64,000 nt of DNA from Tomocerus qinae (lineage: Eukaryota; Arthropoda; Collembola; Entomobryomorpha; Tomoceridae), in contig JAECZT010000014.1 in assembly GCA_020055645.1 (NCBI GenBank), forward strand, positions 207,001 through 271,000, given 5' to 3'. The notes under the pieces are model-generated. The model had not been told where the DNA came from. It made no database searches and saw only the letters and a list, made by a program, of their open reading frames with translations. The position numbers and the translations under genes were made by a program. Below, one piece after another: positions 5,756 to 63,335 of this stretch (the first letter of the stretch is position 1; every line of letters starts with the position of its first letter).

Positions 5756-5828
5756 GCCTAAAAAGTGGTAAATTTTGTACAATGATGAAAATGCGCCATA
5801 CTTTGTAATTCAGGATATTGATAACTAG

Positions 5829-6230
5829 TGAACCCAGCTAAGGGGCAAATCTAGCACTCAAGAGAAATTCAGCAGGCCACCCATCACAGTAATAAAAACA
5901 ATTTCGAAAACACCCCATTAGGTTATTATGTTACCTTTGTAAATACAAAGTATATTTAAATTAATATACTTTTATAGTGAACCCAGCTAAGCGGGGCAAA
6001 CCTAGCACTCAAGAGAATTTCAGTAGGCCACCCATCACAACAATAAAAATAATTCCAAAAACATAATCGCTATTTCCCTTAAGTTATTATGTTAATCAAA
6101 ACTGTTATTCAATTCTACATAAAATGTGTTCAAACTGGTAGAAAGAAATCTTGGGGACAGTAAAAGTAACAGCAGGTCTATTAAAAAATGCTAAATAAGT
6201 TTGTTGATATATTGTAGCAGTTGAGTCGTC
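5829..6230 (+). repeat. Dispersed repeat with SINE-like tail, two tandem head units
   Basis: The segment gtgaacccagctaaggggc...aggccacccatcacag occurs twice (about 5829-5905 and 5975-6065), followed by a body up to about 6230 that resembles the one at 10850-10960 (both have a tri-nucleotide-rich stretch ending ...taaatta/gtttgt.gatat). Diverged copies, so an old family. Confidence 0.5.
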
Positions 6231-16959: not shown

Positions 16960-17345
16960 TGACACTAACTACTTTAATAACTGCTAACTAAATACTTAAT
17001 TAACTATACTACTACCTAACATACTAACTAAATACTAATTACCTATACTACTACCTAACTTACTAGCTAAATACTAATTAACTATACTACTACCTTACTT
17101 ACTAACTAAATAATAATTAACTATATTACTACCTAACTTACTAACTATATACTAATTAACTATATCACTAACTAACTTAATAACTAAATACTAATTGATT
17201 GTATTTCTAACTAACTTTTTAACCATATACTATTTAACAATATTACTAACTAACTTTTTAACCAAATACTATTTAACAATATTACTAACTAACTTTTTAA
17301 CCAGATACTATTTAACAATATTACTAACTAACTTAAATTAAATAC
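16960..17345. repeat. Degenerate satellite of taactaaatactaattaac units
   Basis: About eight units of roughly 45 bp built from ctaacttactaactaaatac and variants. Both base composition and period are irregular. Confidence 0.8.
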
Positions 17346-17936
17346 ATCGATAAGAGAAACTTACGACCAGTTGACTGAGCAACTTCACGTTAAGGCAAGG
17401 CTGGGGAGACCCGGTCCGATTGTCAAGCAATCTCCTAATTTGCCCGTGAAGTATCGACAGATACTGCAGGCGATAACCAAATCCTCAGAGTTGTCGATGG
17501 CAACTTACTGGATAAGCTACTGATCCCGAAGAAGGGTCTCGAAGGCTTTTTATAACCTCCGAGTTCCAAATAATCAGATGCAATTCCCTCATTATTATTT
17601 ACTTTAGAGGGATTATCTCAGTGAAAATAATATATGGGCTCTTATGACCGAATGCAACGTGCATTTAATTGACCATCAATTAATATTTTAAGGCCAACAG
17701 TAGGCGAAATTAGTTTTAAAGATTAAATGGACGTTTTTACAAAGGACAAAAGGGATTAGATGGGTAGCATCCAGTTTTTTACATAAATAGAACTATAGCT
17801 AGGTAGCTGCATAAATATATTCTAATGGTACTTTGGGCATACAAAAAGTTAAACAAACTAAGCTCTTGGTGCTGCTCGCACTAGCATTGACAGTTCCAGA
17901 TTATAAAAATAAGGCGACTGACCGTTGTACCTTACA
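17346..17936. other. GC-richer block of unknown origin followed by AT-rich flank
   Basis: Positions about 17365-17560 are clearly richer in G and C than the neighbourhood and contain short open segments, but no frame is long and no family was recognised. It could be an eroded transposon fragment. Confidence 0.25.
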
Positions 17937-18258
17937 GAGGTATTTAAAATTACGGCGTTATTTAAAAGTACGGCGTTATTTAAAAGTACGGCGTTATTTA
18001 AAAGTACGGCGTTATTTAAAAGTACGGCGTTATTTAAAAGTACGGCGTTATTTAAAAGTACGGCGTTGTTTAAAAGTACGGCGTTGTTTAAAAGTACGGC
18101 GTTATTTAAAAGTACGGCGTTGTTTAAAAGTACGGCGTTGTTTAAAATTACGGAGTTATTTAAAATTACGGGGTTTTTTAAATTACGAGGTTATTTAAAA
18201 TTACAATGTTATTTAAAATTACGGGGTTATTTAAAATTACGGGGTTATTTAAAGTAAC
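17937..18258. repeat. 18-bp satellite, gttatttaaaagtacggc
   Basis: About 18 head-to-tail 18-bp units with small variants (tgttta, aattac). The period is a multiple of three, so it stays open in several frames and produces spurious repetitive open frames. Confidence 0.95.
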
Positions 18259-27846: not shown

Positions 27847-27854
27847 ATGGAAAT

Positions 27855-28270
27855 CAGTAGTAGGGGGACCAGTAAGCCACAACCATACGCCATCTTGGAT
27901 TCTAAAAAAGGCTCGAACAGCCACAACCATAGCCTACGGCACTCATCAAGCACAGTCACTAACCTAATCCCTTATGCTCGGATAGTAATCCTCACCCTCA
28001 CTGTATGCTTGGATAGCCACAACCATACGCCATCTTGGATTCTAAAAAGGGCTCGAACAGCCATAACCATAGCCTACGGCACTCATCAACCACAGACACT
28101 AACCTTACTCTCGGATAGTAGTCCTTACCCTCACTAAGCTTGGATAGCCACAACCATAGCCTGCTGCAATGCTTGTAGTACAGACACTAGGGTAACTCTT
28201 ATGCTCGGATAGTCACAACCATACCCCGATGCAGTAACAGAAATACACTATGCTTGAATAGACACGTTCG
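27855..28270 (+). repeat. Iteron-like terminal repeats of the left arm
   Basis: The motif gccacaaccata (with gccataaccata and gtcacaaccata variants) occurs six times within 400 bp. It is embedded in about one and a half copies of a 150-bp higher-order unit (ccatcttggattctaaaaa, ctcatcaa, atgctcggatag). Placement at the outer end of a replicating element fits a binding-site role for a replication or recombination protein, but that is inference. Confidence 0.7.
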
Positions 28271-28827
28271 TAACCTGAAGCAGTACATTTATGCTAAAGC
28301 AATATAACAAGTGGTAGATATATACAGTATACATAAATCAAAGTCAATAATACGGTCTATAATTACAGAATAAAAGTAGATATGAGTAGAAAATGTTAGG
28401 TACTCGTGGGTACTTATACATTGCGAAGTCAAAAATAATATAATACATAATATGCAATCAAAAAAGGGTAGCATAGGAGAGAGGCTAAATGCCATGTAAA
28501 GGGTAAGTCAGAAGTGATAGGTACAATGGGTACTTGGTTGAGTCAAGTGTATGTGAGAATAATACAGCAACATGTTACCGATAAGGTACCTTGTATAATA
28601 CTACAGCAGAAATAAGTTATTTTCGACACTGCACTACCATTCAAACAATAGGGACGCTATGACTTTCAGTCGACTAATCCCTTCTCAGAAATGCTTTACA
28701 TGAAAACGTTGTATCTTATATGCTTGGTTAAACTTGCACAACCTATTTTTAATATTGCACAAGACTTCACTATGAATATTTTTTCCTTTAAAAAGGAGTC
28801 AATCTAATATATCAATTCACAACGTTT

Positions 28828-29410
28828 TTGAACTCTAAACCTCAAACAACTTCAAAAAGCTCTGTTCCTGTTACTACAAACATTCAAAATATGGAAAATT
28901 GTCCTTTCTGCGGTGTGGCTTTGGCTGGAAATTTTGAACAACATTTTAAGGATATTCATCACTGTCCATCCTGTTTGAATTTTAAACAATCTTGTCACTG
29001 CTATGGTAAATAATATCATACCTATTAATATACTTCAGTTTACTTATAACAATACTTTTAACTAAATAATAAATCATTAATAACAATGACTTCTATACTT
29101 TCAGCGTGTCCAAAATGTGCCAAACCATTTAAAACACAGGATTTAATGGAAGACCATCTCCTAACTGACCATATCTGTTCTATTTGTGACAAAGACCAAA
29201 CCGTATGTATCTGCATTCAACAACTGGCTGAGTCCCCGAGCTTGGACACAAGGAAACGTGGACGAATAGGTGAAGAAATTCCAACTACAAGTAAGCGACC
29301 GAAAATGTCAATCCCTTCAGAAATTACTGACTTGGTTCCAGTTCCTGTAACAATGCAAGTGGACGACATTCAAGACAACCAACTTCCGGACAATGCTGTA
29401 AATCCAAACG
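28828..29410 (+). CDS. Zinc-finger exons of the polymerase element (fossil part)
   Basis: Cys/His-rich segments: CPFCGVALAG...HFKDIHHCPSC, then CPKCAKPFKT...HLLTDHICSICD. A family-type intron separates them (donor near 29006, acceptor tttcag near 29104). They lie directly upstream of the hAT insertion and in the same orientation as the polymerase, whose own beginning also carries a C2H2-like finger, so they probably belong to the same gene or transcription unit. Function is unproven; nucleic-acid binding is likely. Part of a broken element. Confidence 0.5.
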
Positions 29411-29418
29411 TTATTGAC

Positions 29419-32400
29419 CAGAGTATAAAGTAGGCACGCCGTAAATTGTTTTTTTGTACGGCATGCCGTAAATGCCGTAATTGCCGTAAATGCCGTAAAT
29501 GCCGCAAATGCCGTAAATACTGAGTACTAGCTTTACAGCTTTCAATATAATGTATTATATACTGCATTTTTAAATGAATCTGGATAGTCTAATTACTACA
29601 TTTAAAATGAAATTGCGACAAAATGACTACTAAATTATACAGATTGTTTACTACTAACAAAACAAAGCTATAATCATAAATATTAGTAAATTATAATGAC
29701 AATACCAGAATGTATGTAATATTTGAGAACACATCTAATCGTACACAACTAAAGTAAGACATTTATTGCTACTAAAAACTATCAATTAAGTTAAAATTCA
29801 TTTAAGTTGATTTGAGTACTAAATGGTATCTTTTTAAAGTAGGCCTATATAAACTTAATACTGGACTGGAGTATATTATTTATTGTTGAGGCTACGATGT
29901 ATAACAGTTAGTTTGGCAGCTTTTTCGATACCAAGCTTATTCCTGTGATCCGTAATGATGTTTCCCATTGTTGAAAAACAACGCTCCATACCACTCGAGG
30001 ATGCCGGTAGTAACATAAGTCGTACCGCCAAATCCACCAAGCCGTTAGGTAATTCTAGTCCCTTTTCAATTCCGACTTCTCTCCACCATTGCTGAGGGTT
30101 AAACAGTTGTCACCGATGAATAAGGTTTTGTTAAGCAAGTATGAGGGGAAGTACTCCTTATCATTCTGTCGGAGCTTTATCGGAGCAATAACAAATTGTG
30201 GATTTTTTCTCTCTAAATATTTGTTGCCCTTCTCCACAAATCTAGCCGGCAAATTTTCACCTGAATAAAATCATGCAACAAAATACCATTACTGTTTCAA
30301 AAGCAATAAATGACATCAGAAACAGCTATACAGAAATAAAATTAATAAAAAGAAACCTCGGTATTTCGGGTGCAGTAGATACGCAGCACAAGCGAAATCC
30401 GAAAGTGCAATGTTTAATATTTCTCCAAACCGTTTTTTGTAATCTTGAGGAACTTGGCAAATATTGATTATGTCAATCCAAAACTTAGTTGCGTATGCCA
30501 AAGATGCACGATCATGTTGCAGCTGCAATAAAAAAAGAGTTACTCAAATTATTGGACATATACAACTAAATCACCCGAATAAATCATAAACTACAAAGTT
30601 TAGTTTAGTTTGAGTTTATTAAAAATATGTATTTACTTTTATAATTGCTTCCGCAATTGGCTTCATCAAATTCATCGACGATTCCACGAAGTTGTAAAAC
30701 TCAATGTCCATTAAGATCTGTTGCACTTCCAATGGACATTTTGATCTTACATGCTTACTAATCTCGATGTAAGCAGAATGGTTTTTGATGTAGTTTTTCA
30801 AGCAATCAAATTGAGAGTTCCATCTGGTTGAGCAGGGTAATGTAGGCAGATTGATATTTTTTTCCTTTAATGCTTCCCGGGGATATGTGTTGTCCTTAAA
30901 AAAATGTTGAACAGTTTTTACTTTGTTCATCACTACATCTGGGGTAACATTTTTGCCAACTAAGTTCAACAAGTGGGTGTGACAACCATATGTAATTATA
31001 TTATCTTCCTCCATTAGTTTTCTTCGCATAGCAGCTAATGTATTGGTGTTATCTGTCACTACTGATATAATTTTACACCCATACTTGCTTTCGGTAAACA
31101 TCATTGCTTCTTTCAGAAGGTTTAGGCAATAATCCGCATTTTTTTCATCGGACTTAGCATTGACAGCATTGATAAATTGAATTTTATTACATTCAACACT
31201 AATGCAATGAGCGATAATAGGAGAGCTTTGAGCACCTGACCAACCATCTTGCATAATAGAAACATATTTTCCCTGTATATTGAAGTTCTTCGAATCTGTA
31301 AGCTCTTCGTATACTTCTTCAAGAAGTCTACCTCCCATAACGTCCTTGCTAGGGAGAGTGTAGTGAGGCTTTGCAAATTTCATTAGTGCTGCAAATTGTG
31401 GATTCTCGACCGTACTGAAAGAAAGATTTGCTCCAAACACAAATTTTGCAACGTAATTGTCCATTTTCTTTTTCTCTTCGGCCAATTTAATAGTCATAGT
31501 CGGTAGGTCCCAATATTTAGCTTTTTTTGATGAACTAGCACTTGTTTTGTATTGTTGTTGAGCTATACTATTGGCTGATTGTTGTTGAGCAGTACATCTC
31601 TCCACGTGAGCTCTCAATCTATTTGCTTTGGGCCAATTAAAGATTTTTAAACAGGTTTTGCATTCCGCTGTCTTCACTCTACCTTTATTGCCTTTTTGGA
31701 TAACAAAATGAGCCCAGGTTGAATCTTTTGGTCTTCCAGATTTCTTACAAATGTTTCCAAGATTTTCGGTAGGTCCTGGGCTGCCATTGGAATCTTCGTC
31801 GCTGGAAATAGTGTCCATGTCTAGAAGAGGATCGTAGTCGACATCTTCTACGTCTCGAGGCGAATTTTGTTTGTTGAAATTTTGTAAGTCTAATTCGACT
31901 ATTTGCCCCTCTTGAATGATTTCTGGCAAAGTAAAACCTCCTTCTTCATCAACTGAAGTCACCATAATTTGCTGCGAATTATACCCTGTTGTAGCAATGT
32001 TCTCCCCTTCTGATTCCGAATCGTTTTCATCTGATATCCATTCTTCGTTATATTGTGATTGGGATTGGGAGGCATCTGTCATTCCATTGATCACGAGGAA
32101 AATAAATTCATAATATGTTAATGTTTATTTGAAATGTAAAATATGTATAAAAATATTAACGGTATTTTTAAAAACATTAGTTGTCATTATTTACCAGTAT
32201 TACATCAAAATTTAAAGTTCAACAAATAAATCTTGAAACGATATCATTCATTGGCGTGGACAGAAATAAATTTTACTTACCCAAAATTAATCGAATTTGA
32301 CTGTCACTGCACAGTCGACCGGTTGTATTTGCAGTGCTATCCATGTGGTGTCAGTTGTTGAACAACAACAATGTTTAGCTGTCAAACGTCGAAAATGTGA

Positions 32401-32663
32401 CAAAAAACAGTGACGTAAACCAAATTTCGAATGCCAAAATTTAAATATTCACAATGGTAAGAAGAAATAAGCTGTTGATTGTTGAGAATGTGTGATGTTT
32501 TGTTTATTGGATTATAGATTATGCAATGCATAAGCTAAAACAGTGTTCTATGGGTTTACGGCATTTGCGGCATTACGGCATGCCGTAAATTATTTTTGTG
32601 CCGTATTTACGGCATTTACGGCAATTTACGGCATGCGGCATTTACGGCACACACGATACCTTG
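29419..32663 (-). mobile_element. Full-length hAT transposon nested in the left arm, 3245 bp
   Basis: Ends CAGAGTAT and ATACCTTG, with a perfect 8-bp target duplication ttattgac (29411-29418 and 32664-32671). Both subterminal regions (about 29440-29520 and 32550-32655) are arrays of gccgtaaatg units in inverse orientation, plausible transposase binding sites. The transposase runs on the minus strand. The copy interrupts the polymerase element, so it is younger than that element and older than the arm duplication, because both arms carry it at the same site. Confidence 0.92.
29888..32094 (-). pseudogene. hAT transposase, left copy
   Basis: The main exon (30619-32094) begins MINGMTDASQSQSQ, with an acidic N-terminus and then a BED-type finger (ECKTCLKIFNW ... 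HVERC). It is followed by a DUF659-like catalytic region (GRLLEEVYEELTDS, VSIMQDGWS, VVTDNTNTLAAMRR, YGCHTHLLNL). Two smaller exons follow through introns (acceptors near 30529 and 30253). The last contains the hAT dimerisation block LPASSSGMERCFSTMG. The transposase cuts and pastes the element using the terminal repeats. The last exon changes frame relative to the right copy, so this copy is probably not functional, although the catalytic exon is open throughout. Confidence 0.85.
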
Positions 32664-32689
32664 TTATTGACGTAAGTTTGTTACGATCT

Positions 32690-35600
32690 AAACACTGTCA
32701 TGCTTGTGACATTATGTTCCCGTCATCTCATAGTCTTCATACACATTTAGTTACAGTCCATCCAGAATATTACATAAATGTGAACCTACCACAAGTAGGA
32801 ATGGGTGATGAACATCTTGATTTAACTTTAGTTCAAAATGCATTTGATATATACCATGAATTTGACTGTAATTTAGATGGTTTTAAAGTTAAAGACGTGC
32901 GAAATCAGATTTTAAATATTTTTAACAGTTATTTAGAAGATTGGAATACTTTTAAAGTTCACTTTGACATAGTGGTAGGTTTTAGCAAAGAACAACATGA
33001 TGAGACATTTAGGTATGATGAAAGACCTTATCCAGGCTTTATGTTCCCTGTCATAAATATTGAAAATGCTAAGATGGCCATTAAAGTTACAAATGACCAT
33101 CTTGCTGAAAGGTTGCAAGAACATATTCGTAATGGTTCAGGTTGAAATATTGAGAATATTAAGGCTTTTAAAATGACTATTGTTAAGTACAAACCATTTT
33201 CTGGTGGACGACGAAACATTGCATTGCCACAATTGTTAAAAAACAAATGCTACACGTTCATAAACGTCGCCGTAGATGATGGATTATGTTTCAAGCGTGC
33301 TATTTATGCTCATAAAGATTTACATGCTAAATATGTTGATCCCAATCATGTCAATAGGACTTTAGAGAGTGTTAAATTTTATGAGGACATCTTAGATAAT
33401 GGTAAAGTCAACTGGGCTGGAATTAAGTTTCCATTTTCTCTAAAGCAAATCAGTAAATTTGAAAGACAAAATCCAGACATCGGTTTAACCGTCATTGGAT
33501 TTTCAGAAGAATTTCACGAAAAACAAAAGAAGTGTAAGTCAAAACTTGAGGACGAAAATAATTATGATGATATAATAGATAGCGTTGCAATTAATGTAAG
33601 GCCACAGGATGAAAACTCAGAAGATGAAGGAGAACAAAGTGATAAAAAGAAAGATTATCATAAACAGCAGGCTGAGATTGTTGATTATTGTGTTCCTTTA
33701 CATGTGTGTAAAAATGACAGGCCAATCAGGATAGATTTACTTTTAATTATGGATGATATTGTTGAAGATCATTTTGTATTTGTGAAAGATCTGAGGAAAT
33801 TACTCCATCAAAAATATTCAAAACATGTATGCCGTCACTGTCTTCACGGGTTTAACGATGATTACGATGAGCATGTAAAGTACTGTTCTGCTCTTGACAA
33901 GATAAAAACAGTATTTCCAAAGCATAACTTTTTGAAATTTGAAAAGTTTTGTCGTACTCAAATGTCTCCATTTACTGTTACGGCAGATTTTGAATCATTT
34001 CTTAAACCTACGGGGAAATTTTTAGAAATCAAAATAAGTGACAAAAACAAGAAAACGCCAAACACTGTAAAAGTACAACTTCATAAAGCTAGTGGTTTTA
34101 GCTGGCGATGTATTAATTGGAAAGGTAAACAACAAAGTAGCAGTTCATATAGAGTAGAAGACGAAACAGATGATGCTCCAAAACGATTTCTGACAGAAAT
34201 TTTAGCACTCAATGAAGAATTACAAATTGAAATGAAAGAGTATGAAAAAGAAGCTAAGAAAAATATGATAATTAGTGAAGAAGATAACCAAAAGTTTAGA
34301 AATCCTCACAAGCTATGTAGTACTAAATGCCATTTTTGTCATAAATGCTTTACTTTCAAGGATTTTAAGGAAAAGAAAATAGTTAGACATCATGAACATT
34401 TGCCGCCTTATAATTTCATTGGTTTTGCACACAGATCATGTAATATAGCGGCCTCTACACCTAAAACATTAACTGTATGCTTCCATAATTTACGGGGCTA
34501 TGATGGGCACTATCTTATACAAGCAGCTTCCGAGGATCTTGTTAAAGAGGTTGAAGTTATTCCGCAAACATCGGAAAAGTTTATGAGCATCATTATAAAC
34601 AAACAGATCAAATTTATTGACACTGCACTCTTTATGCCGGAAAGTTTAGGAGATTTAGTCAAAGATCTAAAGGAATTTCCAATAACAAGAGATGCATTTT
34701 CTCAATATAGCAAAGAACAAGTAGATTTACTTTTAAATAAGGGTGCATATCCATATTCTTATATGGATTCTGTAGAAAAGTTCAAGGAAACAGAATTACC
34801 ACCAAAATCGGTTTTTAAAAAATGATCTAACCGGCAAAGATATAGATGATGATGTCTACTGCAATGCTCAAAAAGTGTGGAAGGAATTTGGTATTAGTAA
34901 TATGGGTGAATGGCATGATTTGTATTGTCAGCTAGATACCGCGCTTTTAGCAGATGTTTGGTTTACACTTCGTAACACAATGTATGATAAGTATGGTCTA
35001 GATGTATGTCATTATTTTTTATTACCTATGTTCAGTTTAGATGCAGCATTAAAGTTTACAGGTGTGTCTTTAGAATTTATTAAAGATCCAACAATGCATG
35101 TATGGCTAGAAGGTGCAGTACGTGGAGGGTTAGTAAGTGCGGGAGATTTAAGAGCAGCAAAGGCAAATAATGAATATTGTCCTGATTTTGACGATAAGAA
35201 ACCATCTTCTTATATTATGTACTGGGATGCTAACAATTTGTACGGCCATGCATTAAGTGAATATTTACCTCATAATGGGTATAGATGGGCAACTGATGAA
35301 GAGTTAGAACAAATTAGAAAAGATCCTAAAAGTTATATCTTGAGCATGGAAGATAATCAGAAAACGTTCATGTTTTTTGAGGTAGACATGGTTATCACTG
35401 AAGATAAACACGATTTTTTAAATGCATATCCACCCGCTCCAACATCAAGGATTGTAAATGACAAAGAAATCTCTTGTATGCAACATGAACTAGCTGATAT
35501 GTTAGGAGTAGAAGTGGATGGTAAACAAAAGCGATTAATTGCTGATTTGAAAGACAAGGACGGCTATGTATGTCATTATAGGGCCTTAAGAACTTATTTA

Positions 35601-36656
35601 AAATTAGGAATTGAAATTAAATATGTTAGGAAAGTTATGGTTTGTAACCAAAGTCCATGGATGAAGCCTTTTGTTGCGGAGAATACTAAAATGCGCACTT
35701 TAGCTACCAGCGAAATAGAAAAACGATTTTGGAAGCTTTTAAATAATACAGGTTATGGTAAGCTTATTGAGCAAAAAAGACAACGAACTTTAATGCACGT
35801 AGTTCTCAATAAAGAAAAGGGTCTTAGATTGAATAGTAGACCCAACGTTGCTCATTCATCTATTATAGACGATAAAATTGTCTTATTAACCATGAAGAAA
35901 ATGCAAGTTACTCTTGATCGGCCAATAGCGGCTGGTGTTGCGGTATTAGATATCAGTAAGACCACAATCTTCAATTTTCATTATGATTTTATTGCCAACA
36001 CATATCCTGAGAAACATAAGTTGTTGTATACAGACACGGACAGTCTCATTTATTTAATAGAGACAAAAAATGTTTATGATGATTGTCAAAAATATGAGAA
36101 AGACTTCTTTGATATGTCCGATTACAAGTCAGATGATCCAATTTTAGGAAAATATCATAATGCGGTAAATAAAAAACGTTTAGGTTATTTTACAGACGAA
36201 TCTCCTAATGCAGTTATTACTGAATTTGTTTGTACTAAACCAAAGGCTTATTGTGCTCGTAGCAGAAAAACAGCTGATATTTATAATAACTCAGGAGATT
36301 ATTGTAGCAAGAAAAGACTTAAAGGTGTAAGTAGAAGTGCGGTGGAAAATGACATTGTTTTTGATAATTATGTAAATGCAATGTGTCCAGATAATTTTCT
36401 CAATGCTCAGACCTTTGCTGTAAGCAAATCTCTGCGTAGTTTCTTACACCAAATGTACACAATCGAGAGTAGAAAAAAGGCTATTAATGGTCTAGATGTT
36501 AAAAGATATTCTCCCGATGGGATTGTTACTCTAGCATATGGCCATAAAGATATAAAGTGGTATGAACAAAATGATTTTGATGTTAATATTGATATGAATA
36601 CTTGTGAAAAAGATGCCCGCAAATTTGCCGCTGATTTTGTTGATTCGTTTTACTAG
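32690..36656 (+). CDS. Protein-primed family B DNA polymerase (Polinton type), left copy, fossil
   Basis: Starts with a C2H2-like finger (CHACDIMFPSSHSLHTH). The exonuclease domain shows TADFESF (about 33.98 kb), NLRGYDGHY (about 34.49 kb) and YCQLDTALLAD (about 34.93 kb). The polymerase domain shows WDANNLYG (motif A, about 35.22 kb), NNTGYGK (motif B, about 35.75 kb) and YTDTDSLIY (motif C, about 36.03 kb). These are the hallmarks of the protein-primed polymerases of Polintons, bidnaviruses and adenoviruses, which start synthesis from a terminal protein. The full domain order is present, but the copy is broken, with about two interruptions. No capsid gene accompanies it. It ends just before the centre of the palindrome. 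Confidence 0.88.
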
Positions 36657-36690
36657 TATGTAACCTAACCTAACCTAATATAACCTAATT
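36657..36690. repeat. Short telomere-like cctaa run
   Basis: Three consecutive cctaa units (aacctaacctaacctaa), then a degenerate one. This matches the arthropod telomere unit TTAGG on the other strand but is short enough to be chance. Confidence 0.3.
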
Positions 36691-36793
36691 TAGATTAATT
36701 TAAATGTTATAAAATAAAAATGAATAGACAATATAAGTTGATGTAATCCATCGTTCTTTAATGTAATTTAATGCACTATTTTAAATATATATT

Positions 36794-37000
36794 ATGGTGA
36801 TGATTGAAAATAAAATAAAAATTTTTCCACATAAACCTGTTTGGTATGCATATATTTATTTTAAATTAAGAAAAAAATACTTTCATTTACAAATAAAAGT
36901 TTCTGAAACGTTAAAAGATTTGCAAAATTGTACAAATAATCAAGCTGCTATGAACAAAAATTCTGCGGTTTTCAAAATATCAACATTATTAGACATATAA
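36794..37000 (+). CDS. Small basic hypothetical protein in the palindrome centre, 68 aa
   Basis: An ATG-initiated frame rich in Lys, Ile and aromatic residues, about 140 bp downstream of the polymerase end and in the same orientation. No family recognised. Position suggests it may belong to the polymerase element, but the sequence is AT-rich and the frame could be chance. Confidence 0.25.
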   Translation: MVMIENKIKIFPHKPVWYAYIYFKLRKKYFHLQIKVSETLKDLQNCTNNQAAMNKNSAVFKISTLLDI

Positions 37001-37136
37001 ATATCTACTTAAAGCCATTGACTCAGTGTTATCTTAGTTACATATTGCAAAATTAATGTAATAAATCATTCATTTCATGCATAAACCTTGAGAAATTACA
37101 TTAAAAGTCACACTGCTACATATACAAACGTACTGC

Positions 37137-37268
37137 AGTATCAACCGCAGTAACCGCAGCATAAACCGCGGTAACCGCAGCATCAACCGCATTAACCGCA
37201 GTATAAACCGCAGTAACCGCAGTATAAACCGCAGTAACGGCAGTATAAACCGCAGTAACCGCAGTAAT
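37137..37268. repeat. aaccgcagtat tandem repeat at the inner edge of the right arm
   Basis: About twelve 11-bp units alternating accgcagtaa and accgcagtata. The array ends exactly where the right arm begins, so it marks the inversion junction. Confidence 0.9.
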
Positions 37269-37270
37269 TT

Positions 37271-39750
37271 TTATTTATATTCATTATTTGCCTTTGCTGC
37301 TCTTAAATCTCCCGCACTTACTAACCCTCCACGTACTGCACCTTCTAGCCATACATGCATTGTTGGATCTTTAATAAATTCTAAAGACACACCTGTAAAC
37401 TTTAATGCTGCATCTAAACTGAACATAGGTAATAAAAAATAATGACATACATCTAGACCATACTTATCATACATTGTGTTACGAAGTGTAAACCAAACAT
37501 CTGCTAAAAGCGCGGTATCTAGCTGACAATACAAATCATGCCATTCACCCATATTACTAATACCAAATTCCTTCCACACTTTTTGAGCATTGCAGTAGAC
37601 ATCATCATCTATATCTTTGCCGGTTAGATCATTTTTAAAAACCGATTTTGGTGGTAATTCTGTTTCCTTGAACTTTTCTACAGAATCCATATAAGAATAT
37701 GGATATGCACCCTTATTTAAAAGTAAATCTACTTGTTCTTTGCTATATTGAGAAAATGCATCTCTTGTTATTGGAAATTCCTTTAGATCTTTGACTAAAT
37801 CTCCTAAACTTTCCGGCATAAAGAGTGCAGTGTCAATAAATTTGATCTGTTTGTTTATAATGATGCTCATAAACTTTTCCGATGTTTGCGGAATAACTTC
37901 AACCTCTTTAACAAGATCCTCGGAAGCTGCTTGTATAAGATAGTGCCCATCATAGCCCCGTAAATTATGGAAGCATACAGTTAATGTTTTAGGTGTAGAG
38001 GCCGCTATATTACATGATCTGTGTGCAAAACCAATGAAATTATAAGGCGGCAAATGTTCATGATGTCTAACTATTTTCTTTTCCTTAAAATCCTTGAAAG
38101 TAAAGCATTTATGACAAAAATGGCATTTTAGTACTACATAGCTTGTGAGGATTTCTAAACTTTTGGTTATCTTCTTCACTAATTATCATATTTTTCTTAG
38201 CTTCTTTTTCATACTCTTTCATTTCAATTTGTAATTCTTCATTGAGTGCTAAAATTTCTGTCAGAAATCGTTTTGGAGCATCATCTGTTTCGTCTTCTAC
38301 TCTATATGAACTGCTACTTTGTTGTTTACCTTTCCAATTAATACATCGCCAGCTAAAACCACTAGCTTTATGAAGTTGTACTTTTACAGTGTTTGGCGTT
38401 TTCTTGTTTTTGTCACTTATTTTGATTTCTAAAAATTTCCCCGTAGGTTTAAGAAATGATTCAAAATCTGCCGTAACAGTAAATGGAGACATTTGAGTAC
38501 GACAAAACTTTTCAAATTTCAAAAAGTTATGCTTTGGAAATACTGTTTTTATCTTGTCAAGAGCAGAACAGTACTTTACATGCTCATCGTAATCATCGTT
38601 AAACCCGTGAAGACAGTGACGGCATACATGTTTTGAATATTTTTGATGGAGTAATTTCCTCAGATCTTTCACAAATACAAAATGATCTTCAACACTATCA
38701 TCCATAATTAAAAGTAAATCTATCCTGATTGGTCTGTCATTTTTACACACATGTAAAAGAACACAATAATCAACAATCTCAGCCTGCTGTCTATGATAAT
38801 CTTTCTTTTTAACTGCATTTTCTTCTTCATCATCCTCTGAGTTTTCATCCTGTGGCCTTACATTAATTGCTACGCTTTCTATTATATCATCATAATTATT
38901 TTCGTCCTCAAGTTTTGATTTACACTTTTTTGTTTTTCGTGAAATTCTTCAGAAAATCCTATGACAGTTAAACCAATGCCTGGATTCTGTCTTTCAAATT
39001 TACTGATTTGCTTTAGAGAAAATGGAAACTTAATTCCAGCCCAGTTGACTTTACCATTATCTAAGATGTCGTCATAAAATTTAACACTCTCTAAAGTCCT
39101 ATTGACATGATTGGGATCAACATCTTTATGAGCATAAATAGCCCGTTTGAAACATAATCCATCATCTACGGCCACGTTTATGAACCTGTAGCATTTGTTT
39201 TTTAACAATTGTGGCAATGCAATGTTTCGTCGTCCACCAGAAAATGGTTTGTACTTAACAATAGTCATTTTAAAAGCCTTAATATTCTCAATATTTCAAC
39301 CTGAACCATTACGAATATGTTCTTGCAACCTTTCAGCAAGATGGTCATTTGTAACTTTAATGGCCATCTTAGCATTTTCAATATTTATGACAGGGAACAT
39401 AAAGCCTGGATAAGGTCTTTCATCATACCTAAATGTCTCATCATGTTGTTCTTTGCTAAAACCTACCACTATGTCAAAGTGAACTTTAAAAGTATTCCAA
39501 TCTTCTAAATAACTGTTAAAAATATTTAAAATCTGATTTCGCACGTCTTTAACTTTAAAACCATCTAAATTACAGTCAAATTCATGGTATATATCAAATG
39601 CATTTTGAACTAAAGTTAAATCAAGATGTTCATCACCCATTCCTACTTGTGGTAGGTTCACATTTATGTAATATTCTGGATGGACTGTAACTAAATGTGT
39701 ATGAAGACTATGAGATGACGGGAACATAATGTCACAAGCATGACAGTGTT
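37271..39750 (-). CDS. Protein-primed family B DNA polymerase, right copy, partial fossil
   Basis: Same finger, exonuclease and early polymerase-domain sequence as the left copy, at near identity. It extends only to about the beginning of the polymerase domain, ending at the inner junction, so motifs A to C are absent from this copy. Broken, with about three interruptions. Confidence 0.85.
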
Positions 39751-39778
39751 TAGATCGTAAACAAACTTACGTCAATAA

Positions 39779-42700
39779 CAAGGTATCGTGTGTGCCGTAA
39801 ATGCCGCATGCCGTAAATTGCCGTAAATGCCGTAAATACGGCACAAAAATAATTTACGGCATGCCGTAATGCCGCAAATGCCGTAAACCCATAGAACACT
39901 GTTTTAGCTTATGCATTGCATAATCTATAATCCAATAAACAAAACATCACACATTCTCAACAATCAACAGCTTATTTCTTCTTACCATTGTGAATATTTA
40001 AATTTTGGCATTCGAAATTTGGTTTACGTCACTGTTTTTTGTCACATTTTCGACGTTTGACAGCTAAACATTGTTGTTGTTCAACAACTGACACCACATG
40101 GATAGCACTGCAAATACAACCGGTCGACTGTGCAGTGACAGTCAAATTCGATTAATTTTGGGTAAGTAAAATTTATTTCTGTCCACGCCAATGAATGATA
40201 TCGTTTCAAGATTTATTTGTTGAACTTTAAATTTTGATGTAATACTGGTAAATAATGACAACTAATGTTTTTAAAAATACCGTTAATATTTTTTATACAT
40301 ATTTTACATTTCAAATAAACATTAACATATTATGAATTTATTTTCCTCGTGATCAATGGAATGACAGATGCCTCCCAATCCCAATCACAATATAACGAAG
40401 AATGGATATCAGATGAAAACGATTCGGAATCAGAAGGGGAGAACATTGCTACAACAGGGTATAATTCGCAGCAAATTATGGTGACTTCAGTTGATGAAGA
40501 AGGAGGTTTTACTTTGCCAGAAATCATTCAAGAGGGGCAAATAGTCGAATTAGACTTACAAAATTTCAACAAACAAAATTCGCCTCGAGACGTAGAAGAT
40601 GTCGACTACGATCCTCTTCTAGACATGGACACTATTTCCAGCGACGAAGATTCCAATGGCAGCCCAGGACCTACCGAAAATCTTGGAAACATTTGTAAGA
40701 AATCTGGAAGACCAAAAGATTCAACCTGGGCTCATTTTGTTATCCAAACAAACAATAAAGGTGGAGTGAAGACGGCGGAATGCAAAACCTGTTTAAAAAT
40801 CTTTAATTGGTCCAAAGCAGATAGATTGAGAGTTCACGTGGAGAGATGTACTGCTCAACAACAATCAACAACCAATAGTTTTGCTCAGCAACAAAACAAA
40901 ACAAGTGCTAGTACATCAAAAAAAAGCTAAATATTGGGACCTACTGACTATGACTATTAAATTGGCCGAAGAGAAAAAGAAAATGGACAATTACGTTGCA
41001 AAATTTGTGTTTGGAGCAAATCTTTCAGTACGGCCGAGAATCCACAATTTGCAGCACTAATGAAATTTGCAAAGCCTCACTACACTCTTCCTAGCGAGGA
41101 CGTTATGGGAGGTAGACTTCTTGAAGAAGTATACGAAGAGCTTACAGATTCGAAGAACTTCAATATACAGGGAAAATATGTTTCTATTATGCAAGATGGT
41201 TGGTCAGGTGCTCAAAGCTCTCCTATTATCGCTCATTGCATTAGTGTTGAATGTAATAAAATTCAATTTATCAATGCTGTCAATGCTAAGTCCGATGAAA
41301 AAAATGCGGATTATTGCCTAAACCTTCTGAAAGAAGCAATGATGTTTACCGAAAGCAAGTATGGGTGTAAAATTATATCAGTAGTGACAGATAACACCAA
41401 TACATTAGCTGCTATGCGAAGAAAACTAATGGAGGAAGATAATATAATTACATATGGTTGTCACACCCACTTGTTGAACTTAGTTGGCAAAAATGTTACC
41501 CCAGATGTAGTGATGAACAAAGTAAAAACTGTTCAACATTTTTTTAAGGACAACACATATCCCCGGGAAGCATTAAAGGAAAAAAATATCAATCTGCCTA
41601 CATTACCCTGCTCAACCAGATGGAACTCTCAATTTGATTGCTTGAAAAACTACATCAAAAACCATTCTGCTTACATCGAGATTAGTAAGCATGTAAGATC
41701 AAAATGTCCATTGGAAGTGCAACAGATCTTAATGGACATTGAGTTTTACAACTTCGTGGAATCGTCGATGAATTTGATGAAGCCAATTGCGGTAGCAATT
41801 ATAAAAGTAAATACATATTTTTAATAAACTCAAACTAAACTAAACTTTGTAGTTTATGATTTATTCGGGTGATTTAGTTGTATATGTCCAATAATTTGAG
41901 TAACTCTTTTTTATTGCAGCTGCAACATGAGTCGTGCATCTTTGGCATACGCAACTAAGTTTTGGATTGACATAATCAATATTTGCCAAGTTCCTCAAGA
42001 TTACAAAAAACGGTTTGGAGAAATATTAAACATTGCACTTTCGGATTTCGCTTGTGCTGCGTATCTACTGCACCCGAAATACCGAGGTTTCTTTTTATTA
42101 ATTTTATTTCTGTATAGCTGTTTCTGATGTCATTTATTGCTTTTGAAACAGTAATGGTATTTTGTTGCATGATTTTATTCAGGTGAAAATTTGCCGGCTA
42201 GATTTGTGGAGAAGGGCAACAAATATTTAGAGAGAAAAAATCCACAATTTGTTATTGCTCCGATAAAGCTCCGACAGAATGATAAGGAGTACTTCCCCTC
42301 ATACTTGCTTAACAAAACCTTATTCATCGGTGACAACTGTTTAACCCCTCAGCAATGGTGGAGAGAAGTCGGAATTGAAAAGGGACTAGAATTACCTAAC
42401 GGCTTGGTGGATTTGGCGGTACGACTTATGTTACTACCGGCATCCTCGAGTGGTATGGAGCGTTGTTTTTCAACAATGGGAAACATCATTACGGATCACA
42501 GGAATAAGCTTGGTATCGAAAAAGCTGCCAAACTAACTGTTATACATCGTAGCCTCAACAATAAATAATATACTCCAGTCCAGTATTAAGTTTATATAGG
42601 CCTACTTTAAAAAGATACCATTTAGTACTCAAATCAACTTAAATGAATTTTAACTTAATTGATAGTTTTTAGTAGCAATAAATGTCTTACTTTAGTTGTG

Positions 42701-42924
42701 TACGATTAGATGTGTTCTCAAATATTACATACATTCTGGTATTGTCATTATAATTTACTAATATTTATGATTATAGCTTTGTTTTGTTAGTAGTAAACAA
42801 TCTGTATAATTTAGTAGTCATTTTGTCGCAATTTCATTTTAAATGTAGTAATTAGACTATCCAGATTCATTTAAAAATGCAGTATATAATACATTATATT
42901 GAAAGCTGTAAAGCTAGTACTCTG
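39779..42924 (+). mobile_element. hAT transposon nested in the right arm, 3146 bp
   Basis: Inverse of the left copy, with the same 8-bp duplication (gtcaataa at 39771-39778 and 42925-42932). One end has lost about 100 bp of the gccgtaaatg subterminal array. The loss lies between two gagta repeats that are still visible in the left copy (29421-29425 and 29522-29526), which points to slippage or recombination between them. Without that array this copy should be a poor substrate for transposition. Confidence 0.9.
40349..42568 (+). pseudogene. hAT transposase, right copy
   Basis: BED finger (ECKTCLKIFNWSKADRL) in 40349-40930, catalytic DUF659-like region in about 41000-41824, and then two exons (about 41920-42127 and 42184-42568). 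The last is open to a natural end and carries LPASSSGMERCFSTMG and DHRNKLGIEKAAKL, the hAT C-terminal dimerisation domain. The frame is disturbed between the finger and the catalytic region. The two arms have thus lost the gene at different places, which means decay happened after the duplication. Confidence 0.85.
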
Positions 42925-42932
42925 GTCAATAA

Positions 42933-43515
42933 CGTTTGGATTTACAGCATTGTCCGGAAGTTGGTTGTCTTGAATGTCGTCCACTTGCATTGTTACAGGA
43001 ACTGGAACCAAGTCAGTAATTTCTGAAGGGATTGACATTTTCGGTCGCTTACTTGTAGTTGGAATTTCTTCACCTATTCGTCCACGTTTCCTTGTGTCCA
43101 AGCTCGGGGACTCAGCCAGTTGTTGAATGCAGATACATACGGTTTGGTCTTTGTCACAAATAGAACAGATGTGGTCAGTTAGGAGATGGTCTTCCATTAA
43201 ATCCTGTGTTTTAAATGGTTTGGCACATTTTGGACACGCTGAAAGTATAGAAGTCATTGTTATTAATGATTTATTATTTAGTTAAAAGTATTGTTATAAG
43301 TAAACTGAAGTATATTAATAGGTATGATATTATTTACCATAGCAGTGACAAGATTGTTTAAAATTCAAACAGGATGGACAGTGATGAATATCCTTAAAAT
43401 GTTGTTCAAAATTTCCAGCCAAAGCCACACCGCAGAAAGGACAATTTTCCATATTTTGAATGTTTGTAGTAACAGGAACAGAGCTTTTTGAAGTTGTTTG
43501 AGGTTTAGAGTTCAA
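42933..43515 (-). CDS. Zinc-finger exons of the polymerase element, right copy (fossil part)
   Basis: Mirror image of 28828-29410 with the same Cys/His pattern and intron. Confidence 0.5.
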
Positions 43516-44084
43516 AAACGTTGTGAATTGATATATTAGATTGACTCCTTTTTAAAGGAAAAAATATTCATAGTGAAGTCTTGTGCAATATTAAAAATAG
43601 GTTGTGCAAGTTTAACCAAGCATATAAGATACAACGTTTTCATGTAAAGCATTTCTGAGAAGGGATTAGTCGACTGAAAGTCATAGCGTCCCTATTGTTT
43701 GAATGGTAGTGCAGTGTCGAAAATAACTTATTTCTGCTGTAGTATTATACAAGGTACCTTATCGGTAACATGTTGCTGTATTATTCTCACATACACTTGA
43801 CTCAACCAAGTACCCATTGTACCTATCACTTCTGACTTACCCTTTACATGGCATTTAGCCTCTCTCCTATGCTACCCTTTTTTGATTGCATATTATGTAT
43901 TATATTATTTTTGACTTCGGAATGCATAAGTACCCACGAGTACCTAACATTTTTTACTCATTTCAAACTAACTTTTATGCTGTAATTATAGACAGTATTA
44001 TTGATTTTGATATATGTATACTGTATACATCTATCACTTGTTTTATTGCTTTAGCATAAATGTACTGCTTCAGGTTACTTACGT

Positions 44085-44490
44085 GTCTATTCAAGTATTG
44101 TGTATTTCGGTTACCGCCTCGGGGTATGGTTGTGACTATCCGAGCATAAGAGTTACCCTAGTGTCTGTACTACAAGCATTGCAGCAGGCTATGGTTGTGG
44201 CTATCCAAGCTTAGTGAGGGTAAGGACTACTATCCGAGAGTAAGGTTAGTGTCTGTGGTTGATGAGTGCCGTAGGCTATGGTTATGGCTGTTCGAGCCCT
44301 TTTTAGAATCCAAGATGGCGTATGGTTGTGGCTATCCAAGCATACAGTGAGGGTGAGGATTACTATCCGAGCATAAGGGATTAGGTTAGTGACTGTGCTT
44401 GATGAGTGCCGTAGGCTATGGTTGTGGCTGTTCGAGCCTTTTTTAGAATCCAAGATGGCGTATGGTTGTGGCTTACTGGTCCCCCTACTA
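44085..44490 (-). repeat. Iteron-like terminal repeats of the right arm
   Basis: Inverse of 27855-28270. The tatggttgtggc motif recurs six times. Confidence 0.7.
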
Positions 44491-44501
44491 CTGATTTCCA
44501 T

Positions 44502-48200: not shown

Positions 48201-51200
48201 GAGAGTGTGAAGATGTATAAAAGTATCCATAATACATTTAGGCACCCCAGAAGAACTAATCCAATATTATCCAAGAGAGCTCAAATGTATCCGGATACCT
48301 TTGAACACACACAGATTCTCAAAGGTATTTGGAAATGGTTTCCAAACATTTATTTTTAAATGGTATTCAAGCATTTGTTTGGAAATGGGGTTCAAGCATT
48401 TGTTTGGAAATGGTTTTCAAGCATTTGTTTGGAAATGGTTTTCAAGCATTTGTTTGGAAATGGTTTTCAAGCATTTGTTTGGAAATGGTTTTCATGCATT
48501 TGTGTGGAAATGGTATTCAAGCATTTATTTTTGAATGGTATTCAAGCATTTGTTTGGAAATGGGTTTCAAGCATTTGTTTGGAAATGGTATTCAAGCATT
48601 TGTTTGGAAATGGTTTTCGAGCATTTGTTTGGAATTGGTTTTCAAGCCTTTGTTTGGAAATGATTTCCAAGCCTTTGTTTGGAAATGGTTTTCAAGCATT
48701 TGTTTGGAAATGAATTCAAAGCGTTTCGGAAATTTGCGATAAACCTGTCTAAAATGTCTAAAATGCCATTTATATATAGCTATAATTAACTATATACATT
48801 TTAGCTGGAGTTAATTGGATTCCTGAAAAATATACTGAGGATTCTTTGCAGGAGACATTTCAAACTAACTATTTAAGCCATTTTCTGCTCACCAATCTTT
48901 TGGCAGGCCGTATGAACTATACGGGACAGCAGAGCGGAAAATACACACGAATTGTTAATGTTGCTTCAGTGGGTCAATACAGAGGCCATTTAAATTTCGA
49001 TGATATCCAATCCAAGTAAGTGAAATCGTTCTATTAATAATAATGGTCTCCACCATCTATAACAAAATTATAATATAAACGATTTCAAACAGGAAATTCT
49101 TTATTCCTTCAAAAGCATATTTTGATTCGAAGCTTTCAATTGTGGTCATTACAAAATTCTTGGCAAGGCAATTTCAAGAAAAAGGTCTTAAAATTCGAAT
49201 TAATTGCGTTCATCCTGACATTGTGGCAACTAATATGATTCAAAGACACAAAATTGGACTCTGGTTTGTGAAAAATGTAAATTGGATATTTCCGGTAAGT
49301 TCTGTAATAAAATGTAATAATAATAAGTAATCTAAAAATTTTTAAATAACAAATCACTGATTTTATATTTATTTTTGGTAATAATCGATATAATTTCCAG
49401 CAAATCAAAATTATTTCCCGGACGGGGAAGTATATCGATTTTTCTCCGTAAATAGCTTTAGTTTAGCTAAAGTTTTATAATTCTCCGTATCGAAATAATA
49501 CCCCGGTAAAAACTAAGGGTATTTAGTTGCAATTGCAGTAAGTATAATACGTGTACCAAAAGAGAAAAGAACATTGGCATTGAAAGTAGTTGCATATTTA
49601 CTCATTAATCAAGCATTTCGCCTCTCTTCTGGTAGATTTTTAACAAATTCATTGCAAATGAAATCCGGGCCAGGTGCTTTATTGTTTAATATCTTTTTAA
49701 GCGTTTGCAGTTTATCCCCAGCGTCTTGGAATGTGAGTTCGTATACTTCAGGCTTTCTTTATATTTGTCAATTAGGGGACACCTCCATCTCAATTCACTC
49801 TCTCTTCTCTGCGGGATTTACTGTGTCTCTACCTTTATTAAGTGCAACGGGGAAATGACACGATTCATTAAAGTTAAACTGTAAGGTTATTTTCTTCTTG
49901 AAAATTGATTAAATTGTGTCCGTATTTAATGCTGTAATATAAATCTCTTAGATTATCCAGGCTGAGCTGATATTAATTGCACTGATTAATTTAATGTGAC
50001 TAACATTAAATTAATGCATTTTGGGTAACGCAAACCAATGAATTTAAAAATACCTTGGAATTTTGTAATTTTCACATTCCCACGAGTCACAAAACCAGAT
50101 CATACTGCAACTCTTATACATCTGATTTTCCTCGCAGTTCAAATAATTCAATTAGAGGATTCCCTCAATGTCCCAATAAATAAATAAATAATTAATTTTA
50201 CTTTACCTATTATTATTATGTATTATGGTTGTGTTTGTGGGCTGTCCATTTCATTCTTTGGGGTAGCGTCCAACTTGTCGTTGACCATGTACGAAATCTC
50301 ATATTTTCCCCTCCTAAAGATATTTATTATCTGGGTGCCTTTTAGTTTGGACCTCATTATCGGTGTCACCAATCTCGTTAGGCTTTTTACGAAGAATGGC
50401 ATTTTTTCTTTCATCAGGTATGAAGTCTTGTTGATTAAGGTGCCATCTCCAAGTCTTTTCTTCTCCCTCAGTATTCTCCACAGCCCTCAACAATTAACGA
50501 GAATTGGCCGCTCCTGACTCATCGATGGTTTCCCTAGTCGATAAATATTGTCCAGCAGAACATCCTTCTCTTCGATTATGTTCAATAACTCTTCAAATTT
50601 TACAGCAAGAACGCTCAGTGACAGTGTACAAAATTTACCACTTTTTAGCCCTTTTTACCATCACAGTGGTAAAAATGCACTTAATGGTAAAAATGGTAAA
50701 TTATGGTAAATAATTAGCATAGACATACAAAAGACATATTAAAAAGTTTTCGTGCTCTATTTTCTCTAAAATATTTCAAACTAAGAATTATAATATTTGA
50801 ATGCTCACTGACGGTAGTTGAGACAATCATAAATTTATTTACTTTATACATTCAAATTTCATTCAGCAAGAAAAAAATGCCCTTTTAATTAAAATTAATT
50901 ATTCAATAAGTAAATACGGACGAAATGTCCCAATTAGTTGACTCGTGCTTTAGTTATATAACATACATTAAGTTGTGGAGTCAATTTATAATAAAAATCA
51001 GCCGCAAAGGTAATTTAAGTATTAGCGGCGAATTTTATTCAAAATTCTGTACGAAATTTAAATAAAACTGTTTTTCACCATTTTTTACCAATTATACCAT
51101 TTACCACCAATTTTTAGCTAGTGGTAAATAACATTAAATACCTTAAAAACCACTTACCACTGGTAAGTGGTAAATGGCATTTTTTACACTGCTCAGTGAT

Positions 51201-62754: not shown

Positions 62755-63335
62755 GGACCCCTTTTTGTCAACAAAATATTTTAAAATCCCTTTTTGTCAA
62801 TAAAATATTTTAAAATCCCTTTTTGTCAACAAAATAATTTAAAATCCCTTTTTGTCAACAAAATAATTTAAAATCCCTTTTTGTCAACAAAATAATTTAA
62901 AATCCCTTTTTGTCAACAAAATAATTTAAAATCCCTTTTTGTCAACAAAATATTTTAAAATCCCTTTTTGTCAACAAAATAATTTAAAATCCCTTTTTGT
63001 CAACAAAATATTTTAAAATCCCTTTTTGTCAACAAAATAATTTAAAATCCCTTTTTGTCAACAAAATAATTTAAAATCCCTTTTCGTCAACAAAATAATT
63101 TAAAATCCCTTTTTGTCAACAAAATAGTTTAAAATCCCTTTTTTTCAACAAAATAGTTTAAAATCCCTTTTTGTCAACAAAATAATTTAAAATCCCTTTT
63201 TTTCAACAAAATAGTTTAAAATCCCTTTTTGTCAACAAAATAATTTAAAATCCCTTTTTTTCAACAAAATATTTTAAAATTCCTTTTTTTCAACAAAATA
63301 TTTTAAAATTCCTTTTTGTCAACAAAATATCTATT
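62755..63335. repeat. 29-bp satellite, aatccctttttgtcaacaaa
   Basis: About 20 head-to-tail 29-bp units with few variants (ttgtcaac or ttttcaac; aataattt or aatatttt). Confidence 0.95.

What the first reader, a model, noticed from the sequence alone, without database searches (positions are those of the whole stretch)
27847..44501. 7.3 kb inverted arms carrying a Polinton-type polymerase and a hAT transposon
The two arms agree almost base for base in opposite orientation around a 2.1 kb centre. Such a structure could come from fold-back replication by a protein-primed polymerase, from breakage and inverted duplication, or could be an element with extraordinarily long terminal inverted repeats. 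The polymerase element shows no capsid genes, so it may represent a capsid-less lineage. This is the strongest candidate for an undescribed element type in the window.
Basis: partly seen in the sequence, partly recalled or inferred. Interest (0 to 1): 0.85.

Follow-up and report, generated by a model that had tools for sequence, protein, structure and literature searches.

The report
Palindromic Polinton derivatives with conserved hairpin
The inverted 7.3 kb arms are a damaged copy of a virus-like jumping element built as two mirror-image halves; related copies elsewhere in the same genome have a small conserved hairpin at the mirror axis, which hints at an unusual way of copying DNA.

Summary
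The inverted arms are real and not a one-off. The element (window 27856-44492) is a decayed member of a set of palindromic elements, about 13 kb when complete, dispersed in this 334 Mb genome. Each arm carries one PolB gene of the protein-primed kind (PF03175). Ends are AGTAGTAG-like with 6-bp target duplications in 10 of 11 palindromes whose two ends were read; the window copy is the exception, with an altered duplication. A conventional Polinton in the same genome has the same ends and PolB (90% DNA identity) plus rve integrase and A32-type ATPase; its proteins have no match in the palindromes except a weak low-complexity one. Arms of one copy differ by 0 to 22 of about 5,700-6,000 sites outside the axis region (7 copies); PolB of different copies by 0.3-16%. 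The axis is a conserved imperfect hairpin. The hAT is a nested passenger present in both arms. Best mechanism (inferred): the integrated form is a head-to-head dimer of a linear molecule with one protein-primed end and one hairpin end, inserted by a Polinton integrase in trans. Arm-to-arm copying after insertion also seems to have happened here.

The parts
27850..27855 (+). left copy of the 6-bp target duplication, altered: it reads as the reverse complement of the right copy
   Evidence: 3 of 4 empty host-repeat copies (L046-L048) read GATTTC there, L049 differs
27856..44492 (.). whole palindromic Polinton-derived element (decayed copy)
   Evidence: termini AGTAGTAG...CTACTACT
27856..29418 (+). 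left outer arm: terminus, subterminal repeats, N-terminal zinc-finger part of the PolB reading frame
29411..32671 (-). nested hAT transposon in the left arm (29419-32663) with 8-bp duplications TTATTGAC
   Evidence: (DUF659; Dimer_Tnp_hAT in the right-arm copy); uninterrupted site in L044
32664..36656 (+). PolB reading frame of the left arm, in pieces (a premature stop and a frame change besides the hAT)
   Evidence: related to PF03175-matching copies. DANNLYG and YTDTDSL as PolB motifs are recalled
36661..37270 (+). inner arm: non-coding centre module, up to the deletion that removed the axis
37277..39770 (-). right arm PolB pieces (3' half of the gene, inner arm and axis missing)
   Evidence: PF03175 match C14:244451-244993 = window 37451-37993
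39771..42932 (+). the same hAT insertion in the right arm, with a 101-bp deletion at its outer edge
42933..44492 (-). right outer arm
44493..44498 (+). right copy of the 6-bp target duplication

Best explanation
It is a defective, palindromic derivative of a Polinton (Maverick). The integrated unit is a head-to-head dimer of the Polinton's PolB end: terminus, subterminal repeats, PolB gene, non-coding centre module, imperfect hairpin, then the mirror image. Proposed cycle: PolB primes from a protein at the open AGT end and copies inward; the other end of the extrachromosomal monomer is a covalently closed imperfect hairpin, so copying runs round it and yields the full palindrome. The two arms are then the two strands of one duplex and start out identical. 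A Polinton integrase acting in trans inserts the palindrome by its two identical termini with a 6-bp duplication. SHOWN: architecture, termini, duplications, arm identity, conserved asymmetric axis, no match in the arms to the related Polinton's integrase, ATPase or protease, and the presence of that Polinton in the same genome. INFERRED: the hairpin-ended monomer, protein priming by this PolB, the integrase in trans. In the window copy arm-to-arm transfer after insertion seems also to have happened and may account for the doubled hAT.
For: 30 inverted-pair loci by hand from printed coordinates; 23 hold the axis core, 11 of these within 30 bp of the pair's midpoint. More than 700 bp from the axis, arm substitutions were 0 of 5,987 (c11), 3 of 5,846, 2 of 5,833, 6 of 5,748, 6 of 5,751, 15 of 5,980 and 22 of 5,986, while 7-10 of the innermost 38-45 positions mispair in each of the 7 copies. 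PolB of copies differs by 0.3-16.1%. 39-bp asymmetric core: 21 hits, reversed control 0; second pattern 30 against 2. Direct 6-bp duplications in 10 of 11 palindromes with both ends read. AGT number varies, once between the two ends of a copy. PF03175. Conventional Polinton: rve 1e-7, Pox_A32 2.8e-5; of its 7 non-PolB proteins tested, 6 have no match in the palindromes and one (ORF304) a weak low-complexity match in one copy, while the PolB control matches all 20 half-copies and the window. Centre more alike than PolB; patchy fourfold divergence.
Against: No extrachromosomal form was seen. The left target duplication of the window copy is the exact inverse of the right, so arm-to-arm transfer after insertion seems to occur and could explain part of the arm identity. 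hAT arms are less diverged than outer arms (19 of 3,139 against 21 of 1,563; Fisher 0.011), which fits later conversion. Of 84 sites where arms differ, 24 have both states in other copies, more than pure private mutation would give. Arm differences are commoner 46-700 bp from the axis (1-12 per copy). No resolvase was identified. The five F4 pairs, one F3 pair and the window lack the core. Core orientation is uninformative in a palindrome. The PolB tree does not separate palindromic from conventional copies, so constraint on PolB need not have acted in palindromes.
Confidence: 0.6

Rival explanations
1. Arms are kept alike by ordinary gene conversion between the two arms of an integrated palindrome; the palindrome arose by fold-back in the past and moves as a plain long-TIR transposon.
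For: Window left target duplication is the inverse of the right; the hAT and a premature stop absent from a relative are in both arms; hAT divergence is below outer-arm divergence; 24 of 84 arm differences have both states elsewhere.
Against: Conversion should also have erased the asymmetry of the core, kept in all 7 copies measured; duplications in the other 10 palindromes are direct repeats; several copies have almost no arm differences.
Confidence: 0.25
2. Repeated, independent copy-back events in conventional Polintons (defective snap-back genomes; palindromic defective adenovirus DNAs are recalled as a parallel), not a persisting lineage.
For: PolB of conventional L003-L005 falls among palindromic ones; the other Polinton proteins are missing.
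Against: Same axis, same centre module (87-99.8% alike in 10 copies) and same asymmetric core in many copies; no core hit lies in the conventional Polinton C1:112767005-112781594.
Confidence: 0.1
3. Chromosomal breakage and inverted duplication at this single locus.
For: Inverted 9-bp flanks at the two ends of the window copy.
Against: The flanks are a 6-bp insertion site in a dispersed repeat; 29 other inverted-pair loci.
Confidence: 0.02
4. Assembly or library artefact (palindromic chimaeric reads).
For: Only the palindromic shape; no reads were available.
Against: Precise termini, direct 6-bp duplications in 10 of 11, conserved asymmetric axis, copies on several contigs, differences between arms.
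Confidence: 0.03

Closest known systems
Polinton/Maverick transposons (polintoviruses)
   Same: Protein-primed type PolB, AGT ends, 6-bp target duplications; PolB DNA about 90% identical to conventional Polintons in the same genome.
   Different: None of the related Polinton's integrase, ATPase or protease; a palindrome with a PolB in each arm; conserved hairpin at the axis. Polinton gene list from passages of PMC4028283 and PMC6431247.
Palindromic defective genomes of adenovirus (recalled; the search listed no paper on them)
   Same: End of a protein-primed genome doubled head to head.
   Different: Here inserted in many genomic places with a shared conserved axis.
Hairpin telomeres of pox- and parvoviruses (recalled)
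   Same: Imperfect palindrome that reads like a copied-through hairpin end.
   Different: Other polymerases; no resolvase or Rep was identified here.
pELF1 linear plasmid (PMC6863802, passages incl. abstract)
   Same: One end presumed hairpin, the other presumed to carry a terminal protein, as proposed here for the monomer.
   Different: Bacterial 143 kb plasmid; homology not tested.
hAT transposons
   Same: DUF659 and Dimer_Tnp_hAT domains, 8-bp duplications.
   Different: Only a passenger in the window copy.

Membership tests
[quoted passage not shown]
   PF03175 2.3e-14 for a c15 piece; window right arm 3.6e-7, over the cut-off. hmmscan of whole ORFs and of the window left-arm pieces did not list it
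Polinton/Maverick | AGT-type ends and 6-bp target duplication | tested here: met
   10 of 11 palindromes with both ends read (8 F1, 2 F2), window altered; the conventional Polinton itself shares only 5 bp. That AGT ends are typical is recalled
Polinton/Maverick | RVE-type integrase | tested here: not met
   tblastn of the L035 integrase against 20 half-copies, L036, L037 and the window: 0 matches at 1e-3; present in L035 (rve 1e-7, at the cut-off)
Polinton/Maverick | packaging ATPase and protease | tested here: not met
   0 matches; in the conventional relative Pox_A32 2.8e-5 and Peptidase_C5 0.024, the latter below its cut-off
Polinton/Maverick | capsid proteins | tested here: inconclusive
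   two candidate ORFs of L035 (464 and 253 aa) have no match in the palindromes, but they matched no Pfam model, so their capsid nature is a guess
Hairpin-ended replicon | imperfect palindrome at the junction of head-to-head units | tested here: met
Hairpin-ended replicon | covalently closed extrachromosomal end | not testable with these tools
   needs DNA from the organism
Hairpin-ended replicon | hairpin-resolving enzyme | not tested
   no search for one was made
hAT (nested passenger) | hAT transposase domains and 8-bp duplication | tested here: met

The most novel reading that the evidence does not exclude
A portable hairpin-centred module has turned Polinton ends into satellite replicons, without capsid or integrase genes, that have one protein-primed end and one hairpin end. 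The module recombines onto different arms, and each acquired arm is doubled at once because the two arms are the strands of one duplex.
Probability: 0.4. Interest if true: 0.9.

Novelty: new variant of a known kind. Interest (0 to 1): 0.78.

Why it matters
Protein-primed and hairpin-primed replication are usually held to be separate solutions to copying DNA ends. Elements whose integrated form carries a Polinton protein-primed end and a conserved hairpin axis would join the two and make it testable how virus-like elements trade replication modes. They also offer an internal clock (arm divergence) and a natural helper and satellite pair in one genome.

Tried and rejected
Rejected: single-locus inverted duplication (29 other inverted-pair loci); assembly artefact (direct duplications, conserved asymmetric axis); hAT as part of the element (not in the arms of 10 of 10 other fetched copies; one 84-bp match to the hAT end lies outside the c13 palindrome; 4 of 4 independent hAT copies examined have their own 8-bp duplications); 'no target duplication' for the window copy; opposite orientations of the core as flip-flop evidence (trivial for a palindrome).

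Led nowhere: structure prediction of the window PolB piece (single sequence, pLDDT 30.8; no fold search made); PDB profile search (0 hits); relatives in viral contigs (52 pattern matches, none confirmed) and phage records; core pattern in viral contigs (0); PHROGs and NCBIfam; core in F4 pairs (none); outer end of the C1:23.26 Mb relative (not seen in the 250 bp fetched). Literature: searches listed no paper whose title or abstract start describes palindromic Polintons; only passages of three papers were seen, and the library lacks most subscription journals and bioRxiv as a collection. The arm tree left deep branches unresolved. Dropped rows: c13 and c25 were left out of the end reading, and c13, c19, c25 out; c13's right arm out; BLAST rows of 60-80 bp or less were not shown; four three-mismatch hits (C1:114205915, C3:825495, C5:9949602, C5:11714577) were not entered; one search looked at one strand only, which is why one search was run.

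Full report
WHAT IS THERE. Self-comparison confirms arms of about 7.2 kb at 98.4-98.6% in opposite orientation. The element's termini are 27856 and 44492. Inside lie a PolB gene in each arm, broken in both, and a hAT at the same place in both arms: 29419-32663 on the left and about 39779-42924 on the right, flanked by TTATTGAC. A relative at C1:23.26 Mb (outer arm 92-95% alike) reads through that place without the hAT (L044), and 4 of 4 hAT copies examined elsewhere have their own 8-bp duplications. Both arms share a premature stop that the relative does not have at that codon (by eye). Part of the right arm and the axis are missing.

OTHER COPIES. A search of the same genome with window 34500-37600 gave 127 matches. 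Ten loci were fetched as adjacent halves. In all ten the PolB lies in opposite orientation on the two sides, with the outer arm on both sides (for c13 the right outer arm lies beyond the fetched stretch); the centre module is on both sides in 7 of 10, since c13, c19 and c25 have truncated or interrupted arms. Counting by hand from the coordinates inverted-pair loci were listed: 13 like the window (F1, the window included); 8 that match only over the PolB 3' part and centre, at 73-89% (F2); 4 found with L036 (F3); 5 more that share 75-83% with part of L036 (F4). About 15 loci are single-armed or broken and are not in this census. Of the four examined, three (L003-L005) are conventional Polintons and one (L002) is truncated.

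ARMS AND AXIS. Within a copy the PolB arms differ by 0-0.67% in nine fetched copies and 1.05% in the window, while left arms of different copies differ by 0.3-16.1%. For seven copies measured from terminus to axis, substitutions more than 700 bp from the axis were 0 of 5,987 (c11), 3 of 5,846 (c09), 2 of 5,833 (c17), 6 of 5,748 (c15), 6 of 5,751 (c21), 15 of 5,980 (c23) and 22 of 5,986 (c27); 46-700 bp from it 1-12 per copy; and 7-10 of the innermost 38-45 positions mispair in each. Gap events number 4-27 per copy. Of 84 sites where PolB arms differ, 60 are private to one arm and 24 have both states in other copies; the latter speak for some exchange or recurrent change. The inner axis folds as a branched hairpin and is nearly identical in ten copies, c19 keeping only about its inner 55 bp. 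A 39-bp asymmetric part occurs 21 times in the genome with up to 3 mismatches, 12 exactly, against 0 for the reversed pattern; a second part occurs 30 times against 2. Of 30 inverted pairs 23 contain it, 11 within 30 bp of the midpoint; five further hits lie outside pairs; the window, one F3 and all five F4 pairs lack it. In L036 (F3) the DNA shows no long match to the inner 2 kb on each side of the c11 axis, yet the core is 89% alike over 73 bp; the first 470 bp of L036 are, however, 89-91% alike to stretches of F2 palindromes, so F3 is related to F2. No PolB was found in the 5 kb of L036 or L037.

INTEGRATION. Eight F1 and two F2 palindromes with both ends read carry identical 6-bp direct duplications (the script took a wrong start for L040, whose TATGTG was read by eye). 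The window is the eleventh and differs. Ends are AGT repeats, two to four; in c19 the two ends differ by one AGT, as expected of sliding-back initiation by protein priming (recalled). The window copy sits in a dispersed repeat; 3 of 4 empty copies read ATG GATTTC CAT. Its right duplication is GATTTC, the left GAAATC, the exact inverse. The simplest account is a normal insertion followed by copying of the right junction into the left.

SOURCE. Three loci with the same PolB (about 90% to the window) continue after the PolB stop into a shared stretch with a Pox_A32-like ATPase instead of the palindromic centre (Pfam run on L003 only). One of them, C1:112767005-112781594, has AGTAGTAGGGGG at both ends, an rve integrase (1e-7, at the Pfam cut-off), the ATPase (2.8e-5) and a weak adenovirus-protease match (0.024, below the cut-off); two further ORFs may be capsid proteins but matched no Pfam model. 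Its ends share 5 bp (GGTAC), not 6. Searched by tblastn against 20 half-copies, L036, L037 and the window, its integrase, protease, ATPase and three other ORFs had no match at 1e-3; ORF304 had two 41-residue low-complexity matches, one in each arm of c11; PolB as a control matched all 20 half-copies and the window. The genome gives 83 PF03175 match rows.

HISTORY. PolB evolves under constraint (dN/dS 0.08-0.22 over 21 pairs of 7 open frames), but conventional copies fall among palindromic ones (their grouping needs 2 changes, 1 in 42% of bootstrap trees), so the constraint need not have acted in palindromes. Fourfold-site divergence is patchy along the gene (c11-c15: 0.38, 0.09, 0.03, 0.22), and the 420-bp non-coding centre is 87-98% alike between the window and nine others although PolB is 84-85% alike. 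This suggests that arms are exchanged while the centre is kept.

MECHANISM. A palindrome with an imperfect, conserved axis is what one gets when a linear molecule closed by an imperfect hairpin is copied through. The arms are then the two strands of one duplex and identical at birth; an exchange in the monomer appears in both arms; the axis keeps its asymmetry. Plain snap-back or gene conversion would tend to make the axis symmetric. I put this model at 0.6 and gene conversion of a long-TIR element at 0.25. The extrachromosomal form, the priming and the integrase in trans are inferred. The doubled hAT fits acquisition before insertion or later conversion; its lower arm divergence (19 of 3,139 against 21 of 1,563 in the outer arm and 24 of 2,497 in PolB; Fisher 0.011 and 0.16) leans to the latter.

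KNOWN OR NEW. PolB, ends and duplications are Polinton features; integrase, ATPase and protease are missing, so it is a derivative rather than a Polinton proper. Searches of the open-access library listed nothing on palindromic Polintons by title or abstract start; subscription journals, preprints and repeat databases are not covered.

Noticed in passing
window 1245-3440: Intronless 731-aa ORF with AprA-type domains (Methyltransf_36 2e-91, AprA_N, winged helix, weak GNAT), normally bacterial polyketide synthase parts (recalled), in a eukaryotic contig; two further matches in the genome, one in a 2970-aa open frame at C1:35.29 Mb. Possible horizontal transfer.
   Followed up: partly
L036 (G000:C1:48616001-48621000): Another near-perfect palindrome (99.2% over 4.7 kb) with a 287-aa C2H2 acidic ORF in each arm and the same kind of axis core; its outer 470 bp resemble F2 palindromes.
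   Followed up: partly
C4:4361688-4365765 and four similar loci: Inverted pairs (F4) sharing 75-83% with part of L036 but without the core; axis not read.
   Followed up: no
window 62759-63330, 48326-48742, 17932-18253, 16984-17345: Four arrays of tandem repeats with spacings of about 58, 50, 54 and 78 bp.
   Followed up: no
L035:7058-7171: A low-complexity stretch of the conventional Polinton resembles (about 85%) the repeat in the palindrome's centre; the origin of the centre module is unknown.
   Followed up: no
genome G000, PF03175 hits: About 23 further PolB loci outside F1 and its relatives with open frames of 1,000-1,458 aa (hand count), not examined.
   Followed up: no
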